Shown: positions 1,201-17,103 of the stretch, piece by piece
Numbering within the stretch: position 1 is the first letter of the stretch
How the letters are laid out: each line of letters begins with the position of its first letter
Assembly (NCBI GenBank): GCA_025935815.1
Contig: JAICUO010000007.1
Span: 1 to 35,337 of the forward strand
Length of the DNA: 35,337 bases
Direction of reading: 5' to 3'
Source: Streptosporangiaceae bacterium
Lineage (GTDB): Bacteria; Actinomycetota; Actinomycetes; Streptosporangiales; Streptosporangiaceae
The notes under the pieces: generated by a model
The model's input: only the letters and a program-made list of their open reading frames with translations
The model's database searches: none
Told to the model about the DNA's origin: nothing
Translations under genes and position numbers: made by a program

Positions 1201-2037
1201 TTATGGCGTCTGGCCTGCTGCCATGATCGGATAGTCCAGTTGCCGGAGCAGTTCATTGGCCTGTGCCCGCAACGCGGGCGGCATCAGGTGCTCCGGGGGC
1301 GCTGGCTCGGGCTCATTGTGCCCTGCGGGGATTGCCCGGCCGTGCGTGCCGGCGAGGCCGAGGAAGGATGTTATCCGTTCCCCGGCCCGCGGGTCCTGGG
1401 TGAGGTCCTCGAACCGGATCCTTAGGCAGGACTGCGGGTGCTCGCATTCGAAGGCGAGCAGGGCGCTGGTGTGCATGACCCAGTAGGCGGTGAGGCTGGC
1501 GACCGTGCTAGCGGGGTACCTGCTGGTGAACGGCGCGAGTACTGGGTCGGGTATGCCCCAGGGGCTGGCGTCCAGGGCGGCGCGGATGACGCCAGGGCAG
1601 GCGCGGTACAGGCACAGGAACCGGGTTCCGGGGTACAGGCGCAGGAATGCCTCGGCTGCCTCCGGGCTCGCGGCGGCCACCTCGCACCAGCGTCGCTTTC
1701 CTTCCCTGGCCAGGATCGAGGTAATGAGGCTGGTTGCTAGCGCCCGGGTGGTGGTGAAGGCCAGTGCGGACGGCGGGCCGGACGGTCGGCGATCGGCGTT
1801 GCGCCAGGTCGCCATGGCCTGCTCGCATAGCGGGAGCAGGCCGGTGCCCGACGTGCAGGCCAGGTCGGGGTGGCCTTCCAGCAGCGAGCGGAGCGTGCTG
1901 GCCCCGCAGTACGCCGGGGCCAGCACGATCACCGGAGCATGGGAGGCGTGATCGGCGGGGGCGGCAGGCCCTGCCGGGCGGTCACGAGGCTGGGGCGAGC
2001 CGGCCGGGGTGAGGCCGGCGGTGCGGGCCGCGGGCAT
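1201..2037 (-). CDS. Sulfotransferase-like protein with a degenerate PAPS-binding loop
   Basis: A 278-residue protein of the sulfotransferase fold, which normally transfers sulfate from PAPS to hydroxyl or amine groups in the cytoplasm. It resembles its upstream neighbour along its length: VIVLAPAYCGASTLRSLLEGHPDLAC aligns with the neighbour's P-loop segment, and FLCLYRACPGVIRAALDASPWG with its 3'-phosphate-binding segment. However, the loop reads AYCGAST instead of GRSGST, and the serine of the YR...S motif is alanine, so PAPS binding may be weakened or lost. The start is the ATG at 2037, which overlaps the neighbour's TGA by one base (TGATG) and indicates translational coupling. A longer upstream reading exists but only antisense-like composition supports it. 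It could be a partner subunit or a pseudoenzyme. Confidence 0.75.
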   Translation of the reverse strand: MPAARTAGLTPAGSPQPRDRPAGPAAPADHASHAPVIVLAPAYCGASTLRSLLEGHPDLACTSGTGLLPLCEQAMATWRNADRRPSGPPSALAFTTTRALATSLITSILAREGKRRWCEVAAASPEAAEAFLRLYPGTRFLCLYRACPGVIRAALDASPWGIPDPVLAPFTSRYPASTVASLTAYWVMHTSALLAFECEHPQSCLRIRFEDLTQDPRAGERITSFLGLAGTHGRAIPAGHNEPEPAPPEHLMPPALRAQANELLRQLDYPIMAAGQTP

Positions 2038-3470
2038 CACGTGGCCGTCACGGTGCCTTGCAGCGGAACGCCGTGGCGGGCGGCGTCCGCGGGCGCCCAT
2101 GCGCTCAGGCCGAGCAGTCCGGCGAGCATCGCGATCCGGGCCTGGCTGACCAGCGGGCTTTCGCTGTCGGTGCCTGCCGGGCAGTAGCGCAGGTCGTTGT
2201 GGCGCAGTGCGGCGTGCAGGTTGACCTGGCCGTTCAGTACCGCCTGCCATGCCTGCGGAGAGCCGAGAACGCTCCACGTGACGTCGTCCTGCTCCGCCTC
2301 GTCCTCGTCCGCCTGGCTTTCGGCGGTGATCGTCCGGGCGGCGGCGTCGACGAGCCACTGCGTCTCGCCGCCGCCGGTCGCAGCGCGGGACACGATCAGG
2401 AACTTCTCGGCCGCGCACGGCTCCCGCTCGCTGGCGAGCTGCCCGCCGGCGCCCGCTATCCGGGACCGCAGGCATTCCTCCAGCGACCCGGACCCGGGTG
2501 CGGGTCCGCCGGCGGACGGCGCTGCCCGGCCGCGGATAGTGCCGGGAACGCGCGGGTCGGCGGGCCGGCCCGGAGTCCCCCAGCCGTCGTCGACGGGCAG
2601 GTAGCCCAGTTCAGCGGCCAGCTCGTTGATCGCCTCGGTGACCGGCGGCGCTATCAGCCCGGCGGGGACCGATTCCCCCCTGCCTACCGAGTCGCCGCTG
2701 ACCTGCGACGTCGCCCAGATCTTGTGATCGCCCGGGCCGAAGCGCTCCCGCTCCTCGCTGAAACACGCCCGCGCGACCCCCGGCGCCGGCTGGACGCCGA
2801 CGAACGTATAGACCTGCCGCATGACCTCTTCAGGGTCCTCGACCAGGTCCTCGTAGCGGATCCGGTGGCAGCGTTCCGGCTGCTCTTGTTCCACCTCGCG
2901 GATCAGCGCGGCGTTGTCGAGCCAGTACCGGGCCAGCGCCAGGACCGCGTTGCCGGGCGACCCGACGATGTACTGGTCGAACCCGTACCCGTTCAGCCCC
3001 CACGGGCAGGCGTCCAGGCCGGATGCGATCACGTCCATGGGATGCCGGTACAGGCACAGGAACCGCGCGCCCGGGTAGATCTGCGTCAGCAGGTCGGCGA
3101 ACCGCGCCGAGCCCAGGCTCTTGTCGCACAACAGCCGCTTGCCCCGCCGCGCCAGGTAGGACCCGCTCATCTCATCCAGCATGCGCCGGATCCCGGCCAC
3201 CGCCGCGTCCGGCACCCGCGGCGGCGCGGTATCCCGCTCGGCCGCCAGCGGCGCGCCCTCGATGAGTGACCACACCACCGCGAGCTGCCCGCACAAGGCG
3301 GGCATGCTCGTCTCCGGCGGGCAGGCCAGCTCCGGGTGCGCGTCCAGCAGGAACCGCAGCAGCGTCGACCCCGACCGGCCCATGCACAGCACGAACACCG
3401 GGTCAGGACGCGGTCCCGGTGCCTCGCCTGGAGCCCTGCCAGACGACCCGTTGCTCCCGATTGTATCCAT
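2037..3470 (-). CDS. Sulfotransferase with C-terminal SCP2-like domain
   Basis: A 477-residue protein. Residues 24-300 form a sulfotransferase domain: the PAPS 5'-phosphosulfate loop GRSGST is at 31-36 and the 3'-phosphate motif CLYRHPMDVIASGL near residue 140. After a proline- and glycine-rich linker (about 285-330), the last ~130 residues resemble SCP2-like lipid-binding domains (WSVLGSPQAWQAVLNGQVNLHAALR...ARIAMLAGLLGL). The start lies four bases after the stop of the secreted-protein gene, with no Shine-Dalgarno sequence, so translation probably depends on coupling. The next gene overlaps its stop. The acceptor is unknown; the position suggests the secreted protein or a small molecule made nearby. 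I am confident of the sulfotransferase domain and less so of the SCP2 part. Confidence 0.85.
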   Translation of the reverse strand: MDTIGSNGSSGRAPGEAPGPRPDPVFVLCMGRSGSTLLRFLLDAHPELACPPETSMPALCGQLAVVWSLIEGAPLAAERDTAPPRVPDAAVAGIRRMLDEMSGSYLARRGKRLLCDKSLGSARFADLLTQIYPGARFLCLYRHPMDVIASGLDACPWGLNGYGFDQYIVGSPGNAVLALARYWLDNAALIREVEQEQPERCHRIRYEDLVEDPEEVMRQVYTFVGVQPAPGVARACFSEERERFGPGDHKIWATSQVSGDSVGRGESVPAGLIAPPVTEAINELAAELGYLPVDDGWGTPGRPADPRVPGTIRGRAAPSAGGPAPGSGSLEECLRSRIAGAGGQLASEREPCAAEKFLIVSRAATGGGETQWLVDAAARTITAESQADEDEAEQDDVTWSVLGSPQAWQAVLNGQVNLHAALRHNDLRYCPAGTDSESPLVSQARIAMLAGLLGLSAWAPADAARHGVPLQGTVTAT

Positions 3471-4406: not shown

Positions 4407-5456
4407 CTAAAGGCTATCCAGCCAGTCGTGATGCCGAAGCAGGTAGGACAGGCCGACCGCCTCCTGAGCCAGCCGTTCTCCAGCCGATAGCAGCTTGACT
4501 GCGGTTTCGCGATGCGCCGGTTCAAGCCAGGTACTCAAATCCGCTGCCGCCTCGATAGGCACTTTCCGCTGCCCGGCCTGCCGATGCGCAAGCCTGAGCA
4601 TCGCGGCATAGAGCCCGGTCGCCGGACTCACTGCCGGCAGCCCGGCTCCCTGGGCGAGGATGGTGGCGCTGGCAGGGATTCGCAGCCCGTTCTCATCCAG
4701 GTCACCGAAGTACCGCACTTCAGCGATTGGACGCTCCAGGCCAGCGATTGACAGCACGGATGCCTCGAACCCAGTTCCCGCGCCCCATCCCACCAGGCCA
4801 ACTCGATGACCGCCCCGGTCGCGGAGCACGGTTAGGAGGGAGTCGAAGGTGTCGCTGTTTTCCACGACGAGGAGCAGGTCACCATCCCCGGCCGGCTCGC
4901 AGTGCAGGCGAGGTGAGACCCGGCGGCAGCGCAGGAGTTCCATGGTGAGCCGACCTGGGCCGAAGAGGGCGCTCCCGGCCAGGCGGTCCAGCATCTTCTC
5001 GTCACCGAATACCTGAAGCGAACGCTCGCGGCCGGGTACCACGAGGGGATCCCGGCTATCGTGCAGCCAGTCGTTCACCCGTCGCATAGTGGCGGCCTGC
5101 GGGCGGGTCAGGCCTGCCGACGGGACCCAGGCCAGGGCGGGGTGCCAGACGATCGGCCGTTCCGCCGCGCTCGCCTTTACGGCTCGCCGGACCGTGAGGA
5201 ATCCCGGCAGGGCAGGCAGTTCCGAGTAGTCGTACGACCTAGCCGCGGGCAAGGCGACGACCTGCGCCGCGACGAGCTCGGTGATCAGCCCGGCCAGGGT
5301 ACGCCGACGCCGGGTATCGGTCCGCGTCGTGGGGTCGGCTTGGTCGAGGATACGCCATAGCTCGTCGAGTTGGACGCGCTGACGTGGCCAGCCTGACAGC
5401 GTGTCCGCCAGGCGCCGTGCACGCCTGGATAGCGCCACATTGTTCTCCGGGGTCAT
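4407..5456 (-). CDS. jetD: JetD, TOPRIM-domain nuclease of a Wadjet system
   Basis: A 349-residue protein, last gene of the operon. The N-terminal 170 residues are probably a winged-helix/arm region. Then come ERSLQVFGDEKMLD and a TOPRIM fold with the acidic LLVVENSDTFDSLL (conserved Glu, near 200) and YFGDLDENG (Asp-x-Asp, near 250). In Wadjet systems JetD is the metal-dependent endonuclease that cuts plasmid DNA once the JetABC SMC motor has extruded and recognised a small circle. The acidic residues expected for catalysis are present and the length is normal for the family. The ATG overlaps the jetC stop by one base (TGATG), so expression is coupled. Downstream lies the SARP stump; I see no obvious terminator. 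Confidence 0.88.
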   Translation of the reverse strand: MTPENNVALSRRARRLADTLSGWPRQRVQLDELWRILDQADPTTRTDTRRRRTLAGLITELVAAQVVALPAARSYDYSELPALPGFLTVRRAVKASAAERPIVWHPALAWVPSAGLTRPQAATMRRVNDWLHDSRDPLVVPGRERSLQVFGDEKMLDRLAGSALFGPGRLTMELLRCRRVSPRLHCEPAGDGDLLLVVENSDTFDSLLTVLRDRGGHRVGLVGWGAGTGFEASVLSIAGLERPIAEVRYFGDLDENGLRIPASATILAQGAGLPAVSPATGLYAAMLRLAHRQAGQRKVPIEAAADLSTWLEPAHRETAVKLLSAGERLAQEAVGLSYLLRHHDWLDSL

Positions 5457-6930
5457 CAGGCGGGACCATCGGCCCGGACGAACACACGGCTCGCGGTCAC
5501 GATGCCCGTGTCATCCTCGGCCGTGTCCGGTAGGCGCCGCCGGATCTCCTCATCGACCCGGAGGTACTTCATCCCGGCCCGCAGGTCGGCGTCGTTGCGG
5601 AGCCGGACGATCAGCGGGAAGACGCTGAGCGCGTTCATGTCAAACAGGCCGGTCGTGTAGACGAGCTGCACTCCCAGCTTCTTCGCGACCGTGAGCTGCA
5701 GCTCCAGCAGGTAGCCGGCTGAGGCCCGGCCGATCGGATTGTCGAGGAAGAGCACGCCGACGTGCGGGCGCTGGGCCTGGCCTCGCTCGCTGGACCGGAG
5801 CCACGCCATCGTGCAGTAAAGGACGATCGCCGCCGTGAGGAGCTGGCCGCCGGAGAACACGTCGGCTATCTCGGAGACCTGTACCCGCTCGTCGCGCAGC
5901 ACCGAGTCCGGCTTGAGCATGGAGACCTGGACGCCCTTGGGCCGCAGGCCTGCCCGCACGCCGTTTAGCAGGATGCTCAGGCCATCGCGCTTGACCGATT
6001 CCTTGTCCTTGCCCTTCGCTGCCGCCTCATCGATGACCTCGCCGAGGCGCTCGGCCAGGGTCGCGTCATCCGGCGGGGTGAAGGAGATGCGCAGGAACTC
6101 CAGCCCCGACCAGTCACCCAGCTCGGCCGGCAGCCTCGATGCTCGCTGTGCAGCCCGCAGCCGGGTATAGGCGTGCTTGACCATCCCCTGCAGGCGCACA
6201 ATCATCGCGCTGCGATGGCGTCCGATTTGTTCTAGCTCATCGGTGAGCACCCGCAGCCGCGGCCTGAGGGCCGATTCCCACTCGGCGGCGAACTCTGACA
6301 ACTGCTCGCGCTCGACGGAGATTATCTGCTGCCGGACAGGAAAGTCCGCCTTCCCGTACTTCTGGTCCGCGGCATGCCGCGCCAGCAGGTCCGCAAGGCC
6401 ACGGACCTGCCGTGTGGCGTTCTCCAGCATCATTGACGCGGCGTTCCAGGACTCGCGAACGGCGTCTCGGCGCCCTCTAGCGGCCTCAGCGTCTCCTCGG
6501 AACGGCCCGGCCTCACGACCGGGAACTCCTGGCACGATGACAGACAGCGATTCTCGGACCGCTCCGAAGTCGCCAATCAGGCGTTCAAGGGCATTCACGT
6601 GACCAGAAAGTCTCCCTAGGCGCTTCTTGACCTCCTCCCACTCCTCCCAGGTCGTCTGGCGATCCGCGATGGCCGCCTCAACCAGCTGCTTACCGTGCTG
6701 GATGTCAATTGGCTTCCCATAAGGCTCGACTGAATGCGGCTGAGACTGGTACCGCTGATATACCGATTCGCAGCGGCCAACATCTTCCACCGCGATGGTC
6801 ACCTGACGCTGCAGCTCCTCGGCCTGGCGCTGTACCTCGGCTGTCGCCTCCGAGCGGGCCGGGCCATCGCCGCCTTGCGACGTGAGGAGGAGGTCCGTTG
6901 CCTGCTCACGAACCTCGTTGCCAAATTCTC
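5456..6930 (-). CDS. jetC: JetC, C-terminal half (SMC-type ATPase; separated by a frameshift)
   Basis: About 490 residues in a frame shifted +1 relative to the upstream part. It begins where the upstream frame fails, near 6926-6932, reading EFGNEVREQATDLL and then coiled-coil sequence. The first in-frame start (GTG, 6802) has no ribosome site and lies inside the coiled coil. The second half holds the ABC signature as FSGGQLL and Walker B as VGVLFLDNPIG, followed by a D-loop-like segment, so it is the ATPase lobe that must complete the N-terminal Walker A lobe. Without ribosomal frameshifting or a sequencing error, this half would not be made as part of JetC. It could act as a separate chain only if translated from an internal start, for which I see no signal. 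Confidence 0.85.
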
Positions 6931-9836
6931 TGGAGCGCGACCCGCGCCTCAGACTCTGCGTTGCTTCGTCGAGCTTCCTCGGCTCGCAGGTCGGCTCCGA
7001 TCTCAGCTTTCGCGTATGCCTCCACCGCTGCCCGGTAGGCGGCCCGAAGGGATTCGAGGGATTCCTGCGGTACCGCCCTAGCCTCGCTGACCGAGCCGCC
7101 CCCTTCGACGTCGGCCATCTGGGCGTGATAGCTCTGGGCGTTCCGCCGACTGCTGTCGGCGGCCCGTAGCACCTCGGATTGCCGAGTTCTCAGATTCTCG
7201 GCTAGGTCGCCCTGGGCGGATGCTTCTTGCTCCGCGTCGTCGGCGATCACCTTGGCCTGTACGCGCTCGTCCTCCCAGCCCGCGATCTTGCCATGCTCGT
7301 CGGCCAATGCCCGCAGGCTGCTCGCCTTGCCTTTTGCCGCTGCCGCGTGCGAGCGAAGGCCAGGAATCTGACTGCGCAGGCCCGTTGCCTCGCTGTCCAG
7401 AGTGTTAAGCGTGGTGCGCAATTCCCGCTCGCGTCCAGCCGTCGTCTCTTGGTCCCTCACCGCCTGCTGGCAGTCAGCATCCAGCTGGCTGAGTGCACCC
7501 GCGGGGAAGTCCCGCTGCCAATCGGTGAGCTTCGATCGCAGCGTCCGGTCTGCCTCGATCGCAGTCTCCAGTTCCATAATGCGGCTGTGGCGATCTTCCT
7601 GGCGGGACTCGATCTCTTGCCGTTCACGCTCGGCGCTTTCTTCGTCGTACATGGCGGGATTGGGCGGGATGATGAACCCGATGCCCGCAGGCGCCTCCGT
7701 GCCGAGGTCAGCGATGGTCGCGGTCGTCCCGACGGCAATGATGGCTCGCGGGAGTAGACGGGCCTCGCTCAGGAAGGACCGCGCGCGGTCGAGGTCGTCT
7801 CCATAGTTGATCACAATGCCGTCAATTAGGTGGGGATGGCGCGCGATCGCCTGTTCACGCTCATCGGCCGGCATCTGAGACAGGTACGCCCAGCCCGACC
7901 AGCCGACGATCCGCTCGCCCTTCAGGATGTCCAAGGCACTAGATACATCTTCACCTGGTGGCAGCAGGCCTCCGCTGCCAAGTGCGTCCAGCGCGCCTTG
8001 ATCCTTGGCCGCCGCTACCCCGAGGGCATCTCGCTCTGCCGTCGTAGCGCCGATTGCCTCGGAAAGGAACGCGAGGAGAGTGCACGCATCTTGGTCGAGG
8101 ATGACCTCGTCGCTTCCGAGCAGGTCCACAAGCCGTTTTGTCCCGGTCAGGTCGGCGCTCCGGCTAAGCGCGGCCGTTAGTTGCTCGTTGAGCTTCTCTG
8201 CGGCACGCGCCCTGCTATCCAGATCGGCACGCGCTACGCCATGCTCACCCTCGACCTGCCCACGCGTCACCGCAAGCTCTGAGATCGCGTCTATCGTATT
8301 GGTAAGCTGCTGATCCGCTTCCTCTGCGGCTTCCTCGGCCATGGTGGCTGCGTCCGCAACATCCTCACCATCGGCGAGGAGCCCCATGGAAACCGCGTTG
8401 CGAATGGCGGAATCGACGGCGCTGATGTTCTTGTCCAGCTGCTCGATCGTCGTCTTCGCTCCAGCGGCCCTCCTGACCGCGGCGTCCCGCTCACTGCTGG
8501 CTATCCGAATCGGCGCGGCCAAGTCTTGTGCCTGCGCTTCATAGCTGTCCGCGTCTTGATTTGCCTTACTCGCCATTGCGAGCAGGAGTCGGGCGAATCG
8601 CTGGGCTGACTCGTCACGGGCATGAAGAAGTGGCCTGGCTTCGTCTTCCAGCTGACCTATGAACGCGCGAACCGTCTCCGCTGCCTCATGCGTGGCCTGG
8701 TATTTGACCACGATTCCGGTGGCCTGCCAGGCGGCCAGCACGCGCTTGGCTGCATCATGCTTGTCCTCGAGATCTCGCCGCTTGGCCTTCGCCTCATCCC
8801 AGCGCAGCTTGGCGACGAGGCGCTCCAGCTCCCCGATGACAGAGGTGACCCGTTTGTAGTCCCCCTCAAGCTTGCGCTCGCGGTCAGTGACGATGCCGAG
8901 CAGCTCCGCCTGGATCCGGTGCTGCTCGGTCTCCTCGTTCTCCCGGGCCGACAGCGCGACAATAAGCCGCTCGGCATCCGCCACCGCCTCGCGGTGCAAG
9001 TCATCCGCTGCAGCTTTCTCGCCGGCCGCTTCAACCAGCGGCCCGAGGCGCTCCAGCGTCCCTGCGACGAAATCCCGCTCAGTCGCGAGGTCTCCCCGTT
9101 CGGCCAGCGACTTGGCGTACGCGGTCACCGTGTCGCCAAAGTCCTGCAGGTCCTCGTCCGGGAGGATGGCGGTGAGCAGCCAGTCCACGAATGCCTCATT
9201 GGTCTTGAACCGGAAGGCGTCAGCGGCCTCGCCCTCGCCCGCGTTCATCTTGCGCTGATAGGTGAACAGCTCCGGGTCCAGGCGCAGGCTGTCGAGGTGC
9301 TCGGTCCAGTCGGCCTGGACCCTTTCGACGACGACCTGCAGCGCCGGATCGGCCTCGTGGGCCTCATACAGGCGGTCGCGGAACCCGGCCAGGCTGACGA
9401 ACCGGCCGTCCTGGGTGAACGGCAGCGTAGCCAGGTCAAGCCGAGAAGTGGGCCGGAACGTGTACCACCGCTCGGTCAGCTTGGCTGAGTCAGCGGACAC
9501 CACGTGTCCCTGCCACTCCGACACCTTGCCCGTCACCAGTAGCTGGCCGGTCTTGACGTCCCGCCACTCCAGCGCCACGTGCGCGACGTCGCCCCCGAGG
9601 ACGAACTTTTCCAGGACCTTGCTGCTCGTGGTGCCCACCACCTGCCGTTTGCCCGGCAGGATGACTGAGAAGATCAGCCGGACGAGGACCGTCTTGCCAC
9701 CGCCGTTCTCCAGGAACAAGACCGTGGCGGGAGACGTCTGGCCGTCCTCGCCGCACCGCATATCCAAGGTGACGTCCTGGTAGCGGGCGCCCTTCGGCCC
9801 GATGCCATGCAGCCGCACGCGCGACAGCTCATACAT
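6906..9836 (-). CDS. jetC: JetC, N-terminal half (SMC-type ATPase, Walker A and coiled coil)
   Basis: About 976 residues. I choose the ATG at 9836 (MYELSRVRLHG) because GGGAGGAG lies just before it; this overlaps the jetB stop by eight bases. Walker A is ENGGGKT at residues 43-49. Most of the rest is heptad-rich, alanine- and glutamate-rich coiled coil, with a less helical middle (GIVINYGDDLDRARSFLSEARLL...IIPPNPAMYDEESAE) that probably is the hinge. The frame ends at a TGA (6906) directly after ...ARVALQRIWQRGS, while the +1 frame carries on with sense coiled coil. The joined product would be about 1455 residues. JetC is the DNA-translocating motor of Wadjet; as read, the signature and Walker B are cut off, so the chain would be inactive unless the shift is bypassed. 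Confidence 0.9.
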   Translation of the reverse strand: MYELSRVRLHGIGPKGARYQDVTLDMRCGEDGQTSPATVLFLENGGGKTVLVRLIFSVILPGKRQVVGTTSSKVLEKFVLGGDVAHVALEWRDVKTGQLLVTGKVSEWQGHVVSADSAKLTERWYTFRPTSRLDLATLPFTQDGRFVSLAGFRDRLYEAHEADPALQVVVERVQADWTEHLDSLRLDPELFTYQRKMNAGEGEAADAFRFKTNEAFVDWLLTAILPDEDLQDFGDTVTAYAKSLAERGDLATERDFVAGTLERLGPLVEAAGEKAAADDLHREAVADAERLIVALSARENEETEQHRIQAELLGIVTDRERKLEGDYKRVTSVIGELERLVAKLRWDEAKAKRRDLEDKHDAAKRVLAAWQATGIVVKYQATHEAAETVRAFIGQLEDEARPLLHARDESAQRFARLLLAMASKANQDADSYEAQAQDLAAPIRIASSERDAAVRRAAGAKTTIEQLDKNISAVDSAIRNAVSMGLLADGEDVADAATMAEEAAEEADQQLTNTIDAISELAVTRGQVEGEHGVARADLDSRARAAEKLNEQLTAALSRSADLTGTKRLVDLLGSDEVILDQDACTLLAFLSEAIGATTAERDALGVAAAKDQGALDALGSGGLLPPGEDVSSALDILKGERIVGWSGWAYLSQMPADEREQAIARHPHLIDGIVINYGDDLDRARSFLSEARLLPRAIIAVGTTATIADLGTEAPAGIGFIIPPNPAMYDEESAERERQEIESRQEDRHSRIMELETAIEADRTLRSKLTDWQRDFPAGALSQLDADCQQAVRDQETTAGRERELRTTLNTLDSEATGLRSQIPGLRSHAAAAKGKASSLRALADEHGKIAGWEDERVQAKVIADDAEQEASAQGDLAENLRTRQSEVLRAADSSRRNAQSYHAQMADVEGGGSVSEARAVPQESLESLRAAYRAAVEAYAKAEIGADLRAEEARRSNAESEARVALQRIWQRGS

Positions 9837-10644
9837 CGCCGCTCCTCCCGTCGCCCGCCGGGACAATATGCAAGCTGCCGGACGGGTCGGTCACCGTAAC
9901 CACCTGGAGCGCGAGCAACTCGGCGAAGGCCCGGCCGGCGGCCAGCTCGCGCACCTGCACCTGGTAGCGCGGCGTGGTCCGGTAAGTGCCGCCGTCCGCG
10001 TCGCTCATCCTGGCCAGGAACCCCTGCTCGGCCAGGAACTTCAAGGCCTTGCTGATGATGCCACGAGTCGTGGACGGGGAGAGCCGACCGTCCTTGGTGC
10101 GCATGGCCTCGGGTCGCCGCGAGTACACCCGCCACACCCGCTCCAGCTCAGGGGCGTCGTCCAGCGGGTCGCCCGCCTCCTCAGCCTCCGCCGCCCGCGT
10201 GGCCAGCATCAGGCATGCCTCGCGGACCACGGTGTCGACCTGCTCAACTGACACCCGGCCAACGTAAGTCTCGCTGGCCAGGTCATCAGGACGCGGGAAG
10301 GCGAGCGCCGCGACGGCGATATGCGCGACGCCGTGCAGCACCCGCTCCAGGTCCCGGCGTTCACCCGTCATCGCCCGCCGCGCGTAGTCGTCAAACCTTT
10401 GCTCGAAGACCGACTCCTCGGCAGGACCGAGGACCATGCCCGTGCGGGCTGAGACGGCCAGCACCGTCAGTCCAAGTCCCTCCGCGATCGCGTCCGTCAG
10501 CTCCCGGAAGGCGTCGTCCTCGACGGCCCGCTTCACCAGGCCTGCATAGTCCAGGTCCCGTGACGGGACCTGCTTCGGACGCAGCCCGAAGGCCAGCAAC
10601 CGGGCGCCCGCGACAATGTCCTCGATTGAGATCGACTCGCTCAT
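9829..10644 (-). CDS. jetB: JetB, kite-type winged-helix subunit of Wadjet
   Basis: A 271-residue protein between jetA and jetC. Its place, length and predicted winged-helix C-terminus (STTRGIISKALKFLAEQGFLARM...YRTTPRYQVQVREL) fit JetB, the kite subunit that in SMC complexes of the MukBEF/MksBEF kind bridges kleisin and the SMC neck. The ATG overlaps the jetA stop (ATGA), with GGGGAGAAG upstream as ribosome site. I see no broken motif. Identification rests mainly on gene order and fold pattern, since JetB sequences are poorly conserved. Confidence 0.8.
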   Translation of the reverse strand: MSESISIEDIVAGARLLAFGLRPKQVPSRDLDYAGLVKRAVEDDAFRELTDAIAEGLGLTVLAVSARTGMVLGPAEESVFEQRFDDYARRAMTGERRDLERVLHGVAHIAVAALAFPRPDDLASETYVGRVSVEQVDTVVREACLMLATRAAEAEEAGDPLDDAPELERVWRVYSRRPEAMRTKDGRLSPSTTRGIISKALKFLAEQGFLARMSDADGGTYRTTPRYQVQVRELAAGRAFAELLALQVVTVTDPSGSLHIVPAGDGRSGDV

Positions 10645-12149
10645 GCCACCGCTTCTCCCCTCAGTGCGTCATCAGCGGCAAGACCGCCAGGCTCGGCCGC
10701 ACCGAGTCGCGCCACCCCCACCAGCAGGTCGGAACCGCCGAACTCCGGATCGTGCAGCGGCGTCCCGTCATCGACCGCCAGCAGTACCTGGTCGTTGCCG
10801 TGGCGCAGGGTGACGCCGATCTCCGGAGAGACCGCGTGCAGGGCCAGCAGCGCGACCAGCCAGGGCAGGTCCGGGTCAAGCAGGCGGGCGTCGGCTAGAA
10901 GCCCGGAGAGCCGCCGCGGCACCTCGTGCAGCTCAAGAAGCTCTGTCGCCCGATGCCATTGCTCGTCGGTGAAGACCTCGGGATCCGGCAGCGGCGCCAG
11001 CTCTGGCTCCGGGACTTCGCCCAGCAAGTGGTTCTTGTCCTGGGGCGACTTGAGGAGCTGCTCGATCAAGTGCGTAAGACGGGGCAGCCGCGGCGGCGTC
11101 AGCCCGGCCGCGCCGCCGAAGAAGGCCGCAACCGGCCTAGCCGCCTGAGCCACCGTTAGGTCAAGAGTGGGGGCGAGCAGGTGCCCGAACAGGTCCACGA
11201 CCGCGCGCCGCGCGTGACCTGAGAACTGCTGCCGGTCCTGCTCGAACCGGAAGGTACTGCCCGCTTGCTGCAGGCGTGCTTGCAGCTGGGTGTGCCGCCG
11301 GATGCAGTCCGCCACAATCTCGACCAGCTCAGCTGCCTTGAGCTTGCGGGCTGGATCTTCAGCCTCGTCCCTCGTCTGGGTGATGTTGGTCAAGATGGCG
11401 TTCTCGTACCGGTACCGGTCCTCGATATGCACCAGCGCGTCGTTGATCAGGTCCGGAACCTCTTCCTCCCAGTCCACAGAGCGGACATCTCGCCTGGTCG
11501 CCTCCAGCTTGCGGCGCAAGGTTTCGGCGTACTGCACGGTGCGGTAGCGAGCCTGCTGGGCGGCGACCTGCGCATCGGAAAGCCGCCCGCGCTTGATTAG
11601 GTTCTCAAGCTTCACCTCGGCGGCGATCTGCGCCGATTCCACGTCCGTGTCGAGCGCTCCCACTAGGACGTTGATCGCCTCGTCAGAAGCACGCAGGTAG
11701 ATTTCGCCGTCGGCCGAGACCAGTTCCACCAGCAGCCGGAAGTCCCAGACCCTGCGCTCGTACTCGCCTGTCCTCCCGAACGTGCCGTACAGCACGCGGA
11801 ACCCCCGGTCGGTGCTGCCCACGTTGATGAGGTTGTCGAGCACCCACTGCGCGACCTGCGCGTGCTCTCCACCCTCGCGGTCAGGCGCCTGGGCCGCGAC
11901 GAATGGCAGAAGGCGTTTTACGACATCATCGTGACCAGCCCCGCGATCGAAGTCCATGGCAATCGTCACCTGGTCGATAGCCTGAAGGGCGATCTCGGCC
12001 ATCTGGTAGGCGCCTCCGTTGCACCATTCAAGGCGAACTTTGCGGGCGTCAAGATCATGAAGAGGCGCGGTACAAGCGAGGGCCTTGAGCCGCCGGGCCA
12101 GCCCCTCGTCATGGAGTGTGATCACTCCACTGCCATCCGCAGATGTCAT
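10641..12149 (-). CDS. jetA: JetA, kleisin subunit of Wadjet
   Basis: First gene of the operon, 502 residues from the ATG at 12149. The N-terminal half (to ~170) reads as a helical/winged-helix region (YQMAEIALQAIDQVTIAMDF); the middle is helical (SAQIAAEVKLENLIKRGRLSDAQVAAQQARYRTVQYAETLRRKLEATRRDV) and the C-terminus is a small domain. This agrees with JetA, the kleisin that closes the SMC ring. An alternative ATG at 12215 lacks a ribosome site; the 12149 start has a -10-like TACCTT six bases upstream, which points to a leaderless transcript. It overlaps jetB by four bases. The Wadjet subtype cannot be settled by eye. Confidence 0.82.
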   Translation of the reverse strand: MTSADGSGVITLHDEGLARRLKALACTAPLHDLDARKVRLEWCNGGAYQMAEIALQAIDQVTIAMDFDRGAGHDDVVKRLLPFVAAQAPDREGGEHAQVAQWVLDNLINVGSTDRGFRVLYGTFGRTGEYERRVWDFRLLVELVSADGEIYLRASDEAINVLVGALDTDVESAQIAAEVKLENLIKRGRLSDAQVAAQQARYRTVQYAETLRRKLEATRRDVRSVDWEEEVPDLINDALVHIEDRYRYENAILTNITQTRDEAEDPARKLKAAELVEIVADCIRRHTQLQARLQQAGSTFRFEQDRQQFSGHARRAVVDLFGHLLAPTLDLTVAQAARPVAAFFGGAAGLTPPRLPRLTHLIEQLLKSPQDKNHLLGEVPEPELAPLPDPEVFTDEQWHRATELLELHEVPRRLSGLLADARLLDPDLPWLVALLALHAVSPEIGVTLRHGNDQVLLAVDDGTPLHDPEFGGSDLLVGVARLGAAEPGGLAADDALRGEAVA

Positions 12150-12161: not shown

Positions 12162-12215
12162 ACCGGCACCACCGACATTCGAGCTAAAAATCGCGCCTAT
12201 CACGATGTGCAACAT

Positions 12216-14220: not shown

Positions 14221-14456
14221 ATGACTGTGACCACGAGCGCTGGGGAGCCCGTGAGCGACGAAGAACTGGCGTGCACCTTCGCGGAGCACCGCCCCTACCT
14301 GCACGCGATGGCCTACCGGATGCTCGGCTCGCACGCTGATGCTGACGACGTCGTCCAGGAGGCCTGGATACGGCTCGCCCGAGTCGGCGGTGACATCGCT
14401 GAGCTGCGCCGATGGTTGACTATCGTGACCTCGCGAATCTGCCTGGACCTGCTGCC
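14221..14456 (+). pseudogene. ECF sigma factor, truncated after region 2
   Basis: From the ATG at 14221, or more likely the GTG at 14251 behind GGGGAG, the frame encodes FAEHRPYLHAMAYRMLGSHADADDVVQEAWIRL and then ELRRWLTIVTSRICLDLL. This is region 2 of an ECF sigma factor of the SigJ/ECF41-like type, where the DDVVQEAW motif contacts the -10 element and core RNA polymerase. Such proteins normally continue with region 4 and a SnoaL-like domain to about 290 residues. Here sense ends at LDLL; the following bases encode, in another frame, the tail of Lsr2. It is therefore a truncated sigma gene joined to unrelated sequence. It lies antisense to the C-terminal tail of the HAD/acyltransferase gene. 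Confidence 0.7.
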
Positions 14457-16109
14457 GTCCGTGCCTGGGCGCGGGAGAACGGCATTGACATCAAGGAGCG
14501 CGGGCGCGTTCCGGCCAGCGTCGTCGCCAAGTACCGCGAAGCCCCAGGCGGCTAACGGTTCAATAGGCGGCCCGGCCTGGGCACACCGGACCGCCGACGG
14601 ACTCGGCCGGTCGACTTCTGTAGCGGACTGACCCGCAGGATCCGGCTTCCCGGCCGGCCATTCGGCCAGGGTCTCCAGATATGCCGTCCGGATCTGTTTG
14701 ACCCGGTCCCGCATGTTCCGCAGTGTCCAGTCATTGACGCTGACGGCCGGCAGCACGGCGATGTCGACGGTACCCGGATTGAGCCTTCGCGTGTTAGTGC
14801 CCGCCACCGACTCGGAGTTCCTGATCACGATCGGAACGATCGGCAGTCCGGTCGCCATGGCGATCAGGAATGGCGTCCGCTTGAACGGGCCCACCGACTG
14901 TGTATCCGGCCGAGTCCTCTCGGGGGCGATCAGGATCGACAGCCCGTTGCGCGCGGCCGCCTCCAGAGGCTTGAGTGCGGCGGCTCCTGGGTGCTCGCGG
15001 TCGACGAACGCGACGTCGAGCAGTTTACCTAGCTGACCGAACACGCGGCCATCCTGGATTTCCTTCGTGGCGACGCTGGTCCAGTTGTCCTTGACCAGTG
15101 CGGCAACCAGGAACACGTCGACGTTGCTGCGGGAATTAAACAAGAAGACTGCGGGCCGCCGCTCGGTCAGGTGCTCCGCGCCGGTCACGTTCAGCTTGAC
15201 GCCGCTCAGCGCGAGGACTGTGCCGGGCCAGAACCGGGTCAGGACGTTGATCCCGGCGCGCTTGTTGCGGCGCACCAGCCCGACGCCCACCGCAACGGCA
15301 GCCAGTAGGCCGACCGAACTGGCGCTGGCCAGGCGGCGGCCCACCCCGAGCGGGCCACCGCCGCCTCGGCTGCTGAACCGCAGGATGGGCCAACCACGGC
15401 TGACGGCGACCTTGGTCAGCGCGGGTTCCGGGTTGGTCGGCCGCGGATGGCCGACCAGGTACATCAGGCTGAGGTCTTCGTCGCCGTCCGCGTAGAAATA
15501 GCTCGACCCCAGGTCAACGTGATGATCCGCGGCGAACTGCTGCACGCGGCTGGCCTTTGTGGGGCCCCAGATCACGGGCTGCTCGAGATCGCCGGTCAGT
15601 ACTTCCTGCCCATCAGCCACGAGCCGGTTGCACACGATGTGCTCGATGCCGAGATAACGCGCAACTGGCGCCACCTGATTAGTCAGCGCGGACGAGCTCA
15701 GCACCACGGTATGGCCGCGACGCTGGTGGGCCCGGACCATCTCGCGCATCTCCGGGTAAATCAGATCCGCCACGGACTGCCTGAAGATGCGCTCCCCCAT
15801 CTCGTCGACCACCTGCGCCTGCCGCCCCTTGACCGTGAGTGCACTGCCTTCGATCAGGGTCTCGAATGCGCGCCTGCCGAGCCGGAACTGCACCGCCAGC
15901 TCCACGATCGTCAGGAACTCAACGACCCGGAGATCCCGGCGGCGCAGCCGGTCTCTCATCTGGGCAGCGGCGGTGTATCCGGCGACGAGCGTCCCGTCTA
16001 GGTCGAAGAACGCGCCGACATCGGGGCCCTCCGGACCGGAGTCAATTTCCGCCGTCGGCCCGAGGAGCTGCGTCGGCTGGCCAGCGCCGTCCGGATGCGG
16101 GGTTGTCAT
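14313..16109 (-). CDS. HAD phosphatase / PlsC-type acyltransferase fusion with degenerate acyltransferase
   Basis: About 598 residues from the ATG at 16109 (MTTPHPDGAG). Residues 30-240 form a HAD hydrolase of the SerB/HAD-IB kind: FFDLDGT (Asp36, Asp38), SSSAL, K near 200 and YADGDEDLS. Residues 290-510 form a PlsC-like 1-acyl-glycerol-3-phosphate acyltransferase domain, a combination known from actinobacterial phospholipid genes. In this copy the catalytic NHxxxxD motif reads NSRSNVD, with Ser326 in place of His, and the PEGTRS block reads PERTRP, so acyl transfer is probably lost. The last ~100 residues run antisense through the sigma/Lsr2 relics and look non-native, so the original end was probably lost in a rearrangement. 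The DAG-kinase-like gene lies 107 bases upstream. Confidence 0.8.
   Translation of the reverse strand: MTTPHPDGAGQPTQLLGPTAEIDSGPEGPDVGAFFDLDGTLVAGYTAAAQMRDRLRRRDLRVVEFLTIVELAVQFRLGRRAFETLIEGSALTVKGRQAQVVDEMGERIFRQSVADLIYPEMREMVRAHQRRGHTVVLSSSALTNQVAPVARYLGIEHIVCNRLVADGQEVLTGDLEQPVIWGPTKASRVQQFAADHHVDLGSSYFYADGDEDLSLMYLVGHPRPTNPEPALTKVAVSRGWPILRFSSRGGGGPLGVGRRLASASSVGLLAAVAVGVGLVRRNKRAGINVLTRFWPGTVLALSGVKLNVTGAEHLTERRPAVFLFNSRSNVDVFLVAALVKDNWTSVATKEIQDGRVFGQLGKLLDVAFVDREHPGAAALKPLEAAARNGLSILIAPERTRPDTQSVGPFKRTPFLIAMATGLPIVPIVIRNSESVAGTNTRRLNPGTVDIAVLPAVSVNDWTLRNMRDRVKQIRTAYLETLAEWPAGKPDPAGQSATEVDRPSPSAVRCAQAGPPIEPLAAWGFAVLGDDAGRNAPALLDVNAVLPRPGTDGSRSRQIREVTIVNHRRSSAMSPPTRASRIQASWTTSSASACEPSIR
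14412..14555 (+). pseudogene. Lsr2 C-terminal DNA-binding domain fragment
   Basis: In the frame running from 14412 to the TAA at 14553-14555, the second part reads AVRAWARENGIDIKERGRVP followed by ASVVAKYREA. That is the C-terminal AT-hook-like domain of Lsr2, the actinobacterial nucleoid protein that silences horizontally acquired AT-rich DNA; the usual wording is IREWARANG.EVSDRGRIPA.V...Y. The RGR core that enters the minor groove is intact. The N-terminal oligomerisation domain is missing, and the first 14 residues of the frame are the out-of-frame sigma sequence. It has the correct natural stop, so the 3' end of an lsr2-like gene was joined to the 5' part of a sigma gene. Confidence 0.7.
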
Positions 16110-16215
16110 GAGCTGTGGTGACCGTCCAGGATCGTCTCGCGCTGTTGATGTGCCACCATCGGGGCCGTCTGTACAGGGGCCGCCGCCCCGAGGGGCCCTG
16201 GCGCCGTGCACGGCG

Positions 16216-17103
16216 TTAAGCCGACTCTGGCGGCATCCGCAGCAGCAGGGCTCCTGGCTGGGCCACGATGGTGAGCCGACGGGTCGAACCCATGATCTCG
16301 CCATCCACCTCCCACGGATGCGCCTTGTCCAGCGTCACCTGCAGCTCGGTGAACTGAACGCGGTGGATTCCATCCTGAGCCGGGCGCCGCAGCGCGATGC
16401 CCGCAGCTACTGCCAGCCACCTGGTCAGTCCGCCGGCGATCAGCACTACGGCGTCAAGCAGGCCGTCGTCAGGCCGGGCATCCGGCAGGAGCGGCAGCCC
16501 GCCGCGCAGCCAGCCCACGTTGCCGACGATCAAGGTGCTTGCCCGCATCCGCCGGAGACGCCCGCCATCGGCGCTGACGGTCACTCGCAGCGGCCGGTCA
16601 CCCAGGTGACGAAGCACCGTGATCGCGTAGGCGAACCAGCCGAGCCGCTTCTTGAGCGGCTCGCTGGTCCCGCTCAGCATCTTGGCATCCAGGCCAAGGC
16701 CCGCCATCACGACGAACAGCGTCCCGTTCGCCCGGCCCGCGTCAATCCGCTGCTGGACGCCGCCGAGGGCGACTACGAGCGCCTCGTCCAGGCCAGTTGG
16801 CAGGCCGAGATTGCGAGCGAGCAGGTTGCCGGTCCCCAGCGGGATGATCCCCAGCGGTACCCCGGTCTCAGCGACGCCCTCCGCGCACGCGGTGACCGTC
16901 CCGTCACCGCCGCAAGCGAGCACCAGATCAGCCCCGGCGGACACAGCCGACTGAGCCTGGCCCCGGCCGGGATCTTCCGGCGTCGTCTCCAGCCAGAGCG
17001 GCTCATCCCAGCCGTGGTCATCCATCACCCGTCGGACAGACTTGCGGAACGCCTCGTCATCATCCAGTTTGGTCGGGTTCACCACGACTGCGGCCTGACT
17101 CAT
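16216..17103 (-). CDS. Diacylglycerol kinase-family lipid kinase
   Basis: A 295-residue protein of the DAGK catalytic family (YegS/DgkB/LCB5-like), which phosphorylates diacylglycerol or related lipids at the membrane using ATP. The signature motifs are intact: VVVNPTK at the start, LACGGDGTVTACAEGV (ATP-binding GGDGT near residue 65) and LGIIPLGTGNLLARNLGLP. The C-terminal beta-sandwich lobe (VDGEIMG) is complete and the length is normal. No Shine-Dalgarno sequence is obvious. It precedes the HAD/acyltransferase gene on the same strand, and a phosphatidate-level link between the two is plausible. GC content and codon use match the surroundings. Confidence 0.88.
   Translation of the reverse strand: MSQAAVVVNPTKLDDDEAFRKSVRRVMDDHGWDEPLWLETTPEDPGRGQAQSAVSAGADLVLACGGDGTVTACAEGVAETGVPLGIIPLGTGNLLARNLGLPTGLDEALVVALGGVQQRIDAGRANGTLFVVMAGLGLDAKMLSGTSEPLKKRLGWFAYAITVLRHLGDRPLRVTVSADGGRLRRMRASTLIVGNVGWLRGGLPLLPDARPDDGLLDAVVLIAGGLTRWLAVAAGIALRRPAQDGIHRVQFTELQVTLDKAHPWEVDGEIMGSTRRLTIVAQPGALLLRMPPESA

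What the first reader, a model, noticed from the sequence alone, without database searches (positions are those of the whole stretch)
4407..12149. Complete Wadjet (jetABCD) operon with a frameshift that splits JetC between Walker A and Walker B
Four tightly coupled genes carry kleisin-, kite-, SMC- and TOPRIM-type proteins in the known jetABCD order. Walker A (ENGGGKT) and the signature (FSGGQLL) plus Walker B (VLFLDNP) lie in different frames, separated near 6926-6932 by a +1 shift. All other motifs, starts and overlaps are intact, which is unusual for an old pseudogene. Either the system was recently switched off, the shift is bypassed during translation, or it is a sequencing error.
Basis: partly seen in the sequence, partly recalled or inferred. 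Interest (0 to 1): 0.65.

Follow-up and report, generated by a model that had tools for sequence, protein, structure and literature searches.

The report
Wadjet operon with one broken gene
This is an ordinary anti-plasmid defence operon (Wadjet, type III-like) in an uncultured actinobacterium, whose motor gene jetC is interrupted by a single isolated one-base frame change that is either a very recent mutation or a sequence error, not a special translation trick.

Summary
The operon is real. On the minus strand, 12149-4407, jetA, jetB, jetC and jetD lie in order with overlapping ends. JetA, JetC and JetD match PADLOC type III models (E 5e-196, 4e-278 plus 6e-174, 2e-99). JetB matches no PADLOC model but is 49-66% identical to the gene between jetA and jetC in relatives, and its model's best fold matches are MukE and JetB. 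The frame break in jetC is also real in the sequence: a net +1 shift at about 6926-6933, in the second coiled-coil arm, separating Walker A and hinge from signature and Walker B. It is isolated: in 84 of 84 loci (about 80 distinct) the frame is open across the site. The gene shows no decay: dN/dS is 0.08-0.26 against the nearest relative, and 128 of 130 invariant residues are kept. There is no slippery motif or stimulatory fold. Other contigs show few frame breaks, about as many as a near-complete control genome. The likeliest reading is one recent inactivating indel or one sequence error; without reads I cannot separate them. Frameshifted jetC is already illustrated in the PADLOC paper. By-product: almost every Streptomyces sampled carries a core JetABC without JetD.

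The parts
10641..12149 (-). jetA (kleisin subunit), ATG at 12149; an upstream ATG at 12215 is possible
   Evidence: PADLOC JetA3 PDLC00567 E 5.5e-196; 53-69% identity to jetA of relatives, 85% to L082
9829..10644 (-). jetB (KITE subunit), overlaps jetA by 4 nt
   Evidence: No PADLOC or Pfam hit; 49-66% identity to the gene between jetA and jetC in relatives, 83% to L082; Foldseek top hits MukE 3euh/3rpu and JetB 8as8_C, 8dk1_E
6906..9866 (-). jetC frame 1: Walker A, first coiled-coil arm, hinge, part of second arm; ends at TGA 6908-6906. TTG 9866 or ATG 9836 start
   Evidence: PADLOC JetC3 PDLC00588 model 1-985, E 4.1e-278
5456..6933 (-). jetC frame 2: rest of second arm, signature FSGGQLL, Walker B VLFLDNP; first in-frame start codon only at 6802
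   Evidence: PADLOC JetC3 PDLC00588 model 1031-1473, E 6.2e-174; frame open from 7189
6926..6933 (-). site of the net +1 frame break in jetC; rare AGA codon in frame 1, no homopolymer
   Evidence: frame change in coding model; relatives open across the site
4407..5456 (-). jetD (TOPRIM nuclease subunit), overlaps jetC stop
   Evidence: PADLOC JetD3 PDLC00594 E 2.1e-99; E199, D252 and D254 invariant in 11 aligned JetD

Best explanation
This is a type III-like Wadjet plasmid-restriction operon. In intact form JetA, JetB and JetC form an SMC loop-extruding motor, and JetD is the TOPRIM nuclease that cuts small circular DNA when the motors meet (mechanism inferred from characterised type I systems). 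In this sequence jetC carries one isolated net +1 indel. Read literally, JetC ends after 986 residues without its signature and Walker B motifs, so no working ATPase head can form and JetD would not be triggered. The break is either a very recent real mutation (I give about 50%) or a sequence or assembly error in a working gene (about 40%). Shown: the operon, the break, its absence from relatives, and the lack of decay. Inferred: loss of function, and the split between mutation and error.
For: PADLOC matches for A, C and D. JetB by synteny and fold. Frame open across the site in 84 of 84 related loci (L058 ORF) and in the genomes. dN/dS against L082: JetA 0.105, JetB 0.123, JetC head 0.141, JetC coil 0.262; an intact Nocardiopsis pair gives 0.219 for whole JetC. 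38/38 and 90/92 invariant residues kept before and after the break. Few frame breaks elsewhere: 7 loose candidates in 60 other contigs, one of them convincing; a near-complete relative gives 4 in 400 kb. All four jet genes are needed for activity (PMC10586767). A frameshifted jetC is an example in the PADLOC paper (PMC9252829). Homology-validated frameshifts found in one genome only are put down to sequencing error or recent indel (PMC3711429).
Against: No close relative covers the break: L082 stops at JetC residue 543. Reads were not available, so error and mutation are not separated, and the two lead to opposite conclusions about activity. The frame-break background is low, which argues mildly against a generally error-prone assembly.
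Confidence: 0.9

Rival explanations
1. The ribosome shifts +1 at the site and makes full-length JetC, so the break is a programmed or tolerated recoding event that sets a low JetC dose.
For: Both sides of the gene are conserved. The frame-1 codon at the break is AGA, one of the rarest in this genome at 0.75 per 1000, and the TGA follows within 30 nt.
Against: No relative has the break. The sequence is not a known +1 site of the prfB (CUU UGA) type. The surrounding RNA folds no better than shuffles, z +0.29. The lack of decay is equally expected from a recent break or an error.
Confidence: 0.04
2. JetC works as two polypeptides, a Walker A half and a signature/Walker B half, that assemble into one head.
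For: SMC heads are built from N- and C-terminal lobes, so a split protein is conceivable (established knowledge). The C-terminal half keeps its invariant residues.
Against: The first start in frame 2 is GTG 6802, 104 nt past the TGA, and its nearest Shine-Dalgarno-like GAGGAG is about 12 nt upstream, which is long (sequence). Coding signal and similarity run through the gap between 6928 and 6802, which a split gene would not need. No relative is split.
Confidence: 0.03
3. This is an old pseudogene in a decaying operon.
For: One frame-breaking indel.
Against: No second stop or indel in 7.7 kb; purifying selection against the nearest relative; active-site motifs intact in C and D.
Confidence: 0.03

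Closest known systems
Wadjet type III (PADLOC JetA3/JetC3/JetD3; JetABCD)
   Same: Gene order A-B-C-D, overlapping starts and stops, profile matches for A, C and D, TOPRIM residues in JetD.
   Different: JetB matches no PADLOC model; JetC is interrupted by a net +1 frame break in this assembly.
jetABCD operons of Actinoallomurus (L103/L051, L052), Nocardiopsis (L126/L054, L133/L053) and a Micromonosporaceae MAG (L093)
   Same: All four genes, about 51-67% identity for A, B and D and 40-54% for JetC.
   Different: Their jetC is one open frame of about 1500 codons or more.
Core JetABC of Streptomyces and Pseudonocardiaceae
   Same: JetA about 61-69% identity, JetC 46-59% over the C-terminal part, same invariant LFLDNP Walker B.
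   Different: No jetD beside it in most cases; probably not a plasmid restriction system on its own.
MukBEF / MksBEF(G), type I Wadjet
   Same: Same SMC-kleisin-KITE plan; MukE and type I JetB are the nearest solved folds to this JetB.
   Different: No sequence-level match of JetA, JetB or JetD profiles to any solved chain.

Membership tests
Wadjet type III (JetABCD) | Four genes jetA-jetB-jetC-jetD in order in one operon | tested here: met
Wadjet type III (JetABCD) | JetA kleisin-type subunit of the type III family | tested here: met
   PDLC00567 JetA3 E 5.5e-196
Wadjet type III (JetABCD) | JetB KITE-type subunit | tested here: inconclusive
   No profile hit; homologous by position and identity to jetB of relatives; Foldseek ranks 1-9 are MukE/JetB chains but best E is 3.3e-3 and TM is low; the second aligner ranks generic winged helices first
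Wadjet type III (JetABCD) | Intact JetC SMC ATPase with Walker A, signature and Walker B in one polypeptide | tested here: not met
   Motifs present but in two frames; so it is a jetC gene, but not an intact one in this sequence
Wadjet type III (JetABCD) | JetD with TOPRIM domain and acidic active-site residues | tested here: met
   PDLC00594 JetD3 E 2.1e-99; E199, D252, D254 invariant
Wadjet type III (JetABCD) | Restricts small circular plasmids | not testable with these tools
   Needs an experiment
Programmed ribosomal frameshifting | Frame break conserved at the same site in relatives | tested here: not met
   84 of 84 loci open across the site
Programmed ribosomal frameshifting | Stimulatory RNA structure near the shift site | tested here: not met
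   z +0.29 over 141 nt

The most novel reading that the evidence does not exclude
The frame break is real and jetC is still expressed in full through a lineage-specific +1 shift at the rare AGA codon, giving a low-dose Wadjet motor.
Probability: 0.04. Interest if true: 0.6.

Novelty: new member of a known kind. Interest (0 to 1): 0.17.

Why it matters
It adds one divergent actinobacterial type III Wadjet operon and a clean example of a defence system that automatic tools would miss twice, because of a divergent JetB and a frame-broken JetC. If the break is real, it is a freshly switched-off plasmid barrier. The wider comparison gives a more useful lead: a JetABC core without the nuclease is almost universal in Streptomyces and may serve the chromosome rather than defence.

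Tried and rejected
The first genome-contig scan with the JetC C-terminal half found nothing; JetA alignment A1 was used instead. Viral-contig scan with A1 found no relative. Plasmid records hold only distant homologues, best 48% over 72% of the query in Rhodococcus. The genome of the closest relative, L082, has no JetC C-terminal half, so the break could not be checked in a near relative. Solved-structure sequence searches for JetA, JetB and JetD profiles gave nothing. Old pseudogene rejected. Programmed frameshift disfavoured. Insertion by a mobile element: no tRNA and no integrase or transposase among the neighbouring proteins scanned with Pfam; the one sister region examined shares only the 14.3-17.1 kb gene pair at this locus.

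Full report
What was claimed.

Observation. Everything lies on the minus strand: JetA 12149..10641, JetB 10644..9829, JetC 9866/9836..5456 in two frames, JetD 5456..4407. JetA, both JetC pieces and JetD match PADLOC type III profiles at E 5.5e-196, 4.1e-278, 6.2e-174 and 2.1e-99. The two JetC pieces match consecutive parts of the same profile (1-985 and 1031-1473). JetB has no PADLOC or Pfam hit, but the gene between jetA and jetC in relatives is its homologue at 49-66% identity. An AlphaFold2 model from 14 sequences (mean pLDDT 78.7) has MukE and JetB chains as its nine best Foldseek matches, although at modest scores (E 3.3e-3), and a second aligner sees mostly generic winged helices. Frame 1 ends at TGA 6908-6906; frame 2 is open from 7189, and skipping one base between about 6933 and 6926 joins the conserved parts. 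A codon-based coding model places the frame change at the same site.

Is the break shared? No. Loci carrying a homologue of the C-terminal half were collected from whole-genome searches of the class and family and a scan of 84,980 species genomes with the JetA profile. In 83 of 84 loci one open frame spans both halves; the other, L058, is a single 1677-codon frame whose N-terminal similarity only fell below my threshold. Four loci are duplicates, so about 80 are distinct. None of the other sampled genomes of the same genus carries jetC. The closest relative is a 3.7 kb contig binned as Acidimicrobiaceae (L082, 80% DNA identity), but it ends at JetC residue 543 and the rest is not found in that genome.

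Is the gene decaying? No. Against L082, dN/dS is 0.105 for JetA, 0.123 for JetB, 0.141 for the JetC head and 0.262 for its coil; an intact Nocardiopsis pair gives 0.219 over whole JetC. The L082 test reaches only the first 543 residues. For the C-terminal half, 90 of 92 residues invariant in 79 relatives are kept, and 38 of 38 in the N-terminal half. There is no second stop or indel. JetD keeps E199, D252 and D254.

Is the assembly error-prone? The genome is a draft of 1009 contigs, 83% complete. In 467 kb (61 contigs including the window) the coding model flags 8 possible frame breaks. By inspection only the JetC site and one site in a type I restriction subunit (L198 near 837) look like real breaks. 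A near-complete relative gives 4 flags in 400 kb. So the assembly is not broadly frameshifted. This does not rule out a single error here.

Recoding or a split protein. The site has a rare AGA codon (0.75 per 1000) but no known +1 motif, and the surrounding RNA folds no better than shuffles (z +0.29). The first start in frame 2 is at 6802, 104 nt past the stop. Neither idea has positive support.

How it works. By inference from type I systems, JetABC extrudes DNA loops and triggers JetD to cut small circles; all four subunits and a working ATPase are needed (PMC10586767). A JetC that stops before the signature and Walker B motifs should leave the system inactive. I put about 50% on a recent real mutation and 40% on a sequence error.

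What is known. The PADLOC paper uses a frameshift within jetC as its example of why a Wadjet operon can be missed (PMC9252829). A survey of 1106 genomes attributes homology-validated frameshifts seen in only one genome mainly to sequencing error or recent indel (PMC3711429), and assembly errors make many apparent pseudogenes (PMC11017572). Wadjet is common in Actinobacteria, 42% of genomes (PMC10482375). The finding is therefore an ordinary member with an ordinary kind of lesion.

By-product. In a sample of 101 Streptomyces genomes, 98 carry a JetA 81-98% identical to that of S. flavotricini, but only 9 carry any JetD matching the profile. Each of those 9 has a second, diverged JetA within about 7 kb of the JetD, so the core JetABC itself goes without. 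On a JetA tree the JetD-less loci form mainly a Streptomyces clade and a Pseudonocardiaceae clade; the window groups with L082, near but not clearly inside the JetD-bearing set. MksBEF of Pseudomonas is thought to have arisen by loss of JetD (PMC10586767), so a chromosome role is a reasonable guess. I found no paper in the held library on the Streptomyces complex, but most subscription papers are not held.

Noticed in passing
Streptomyces genomes; L122-L161: A conserved JetABC core is present in 98 of 101 Streptomyces genomes, while JetD is found in only 9 of 101, each time beside a second, diverged JetA. Looks like a nuclease-less chromosomal SMC complex.
   Followed up: partly
L083-L119 (Amycolatopsis, Prauserella): JetABC without adjacent JetD in most Pseudonocardiaceae; A. 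rifamycinica (L108, 16695-17774) has a JetD beside the same core JetABC.
   Followed up: partly
window 5456-6802, minus strand, and 79 relatives: Walker B reads LFLDNP in all 79 relatives: asparagine sits where SMC ATPases usually have the catalytic glutamate.
   Followed up: partly
L198:800-900: Another frame break in the same draft genome, in a type I restriction R subunit; the only other convincing break among 60 sampled contigs, also in a defence gene.
   Followed up: partly
L082 (JAODBN010000373.1): 80% DNA identity to window 8239-11900 in a contig binned as Acidimicrobiaceae: a mis-binned contig or horizontal transfer.
   Followed up: partly
window 9829-10644: This JetB matches no PADLOC-DB 2.0.0 model, so such operons may be called incomplete.
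   Followed up: no
window 14313-17103: HAD/acyltransferase and diacylglycerol-kinase gene pair conserved at 85% DNA identity in a sister genome (L218), while the jet region is absent there.
   Followed up: partly
window 1201-3470: Two adjacent sulfotransferase-family genes, with a similar pair in contig C785 of the same genome and in a sister genome.
   Followed up: no
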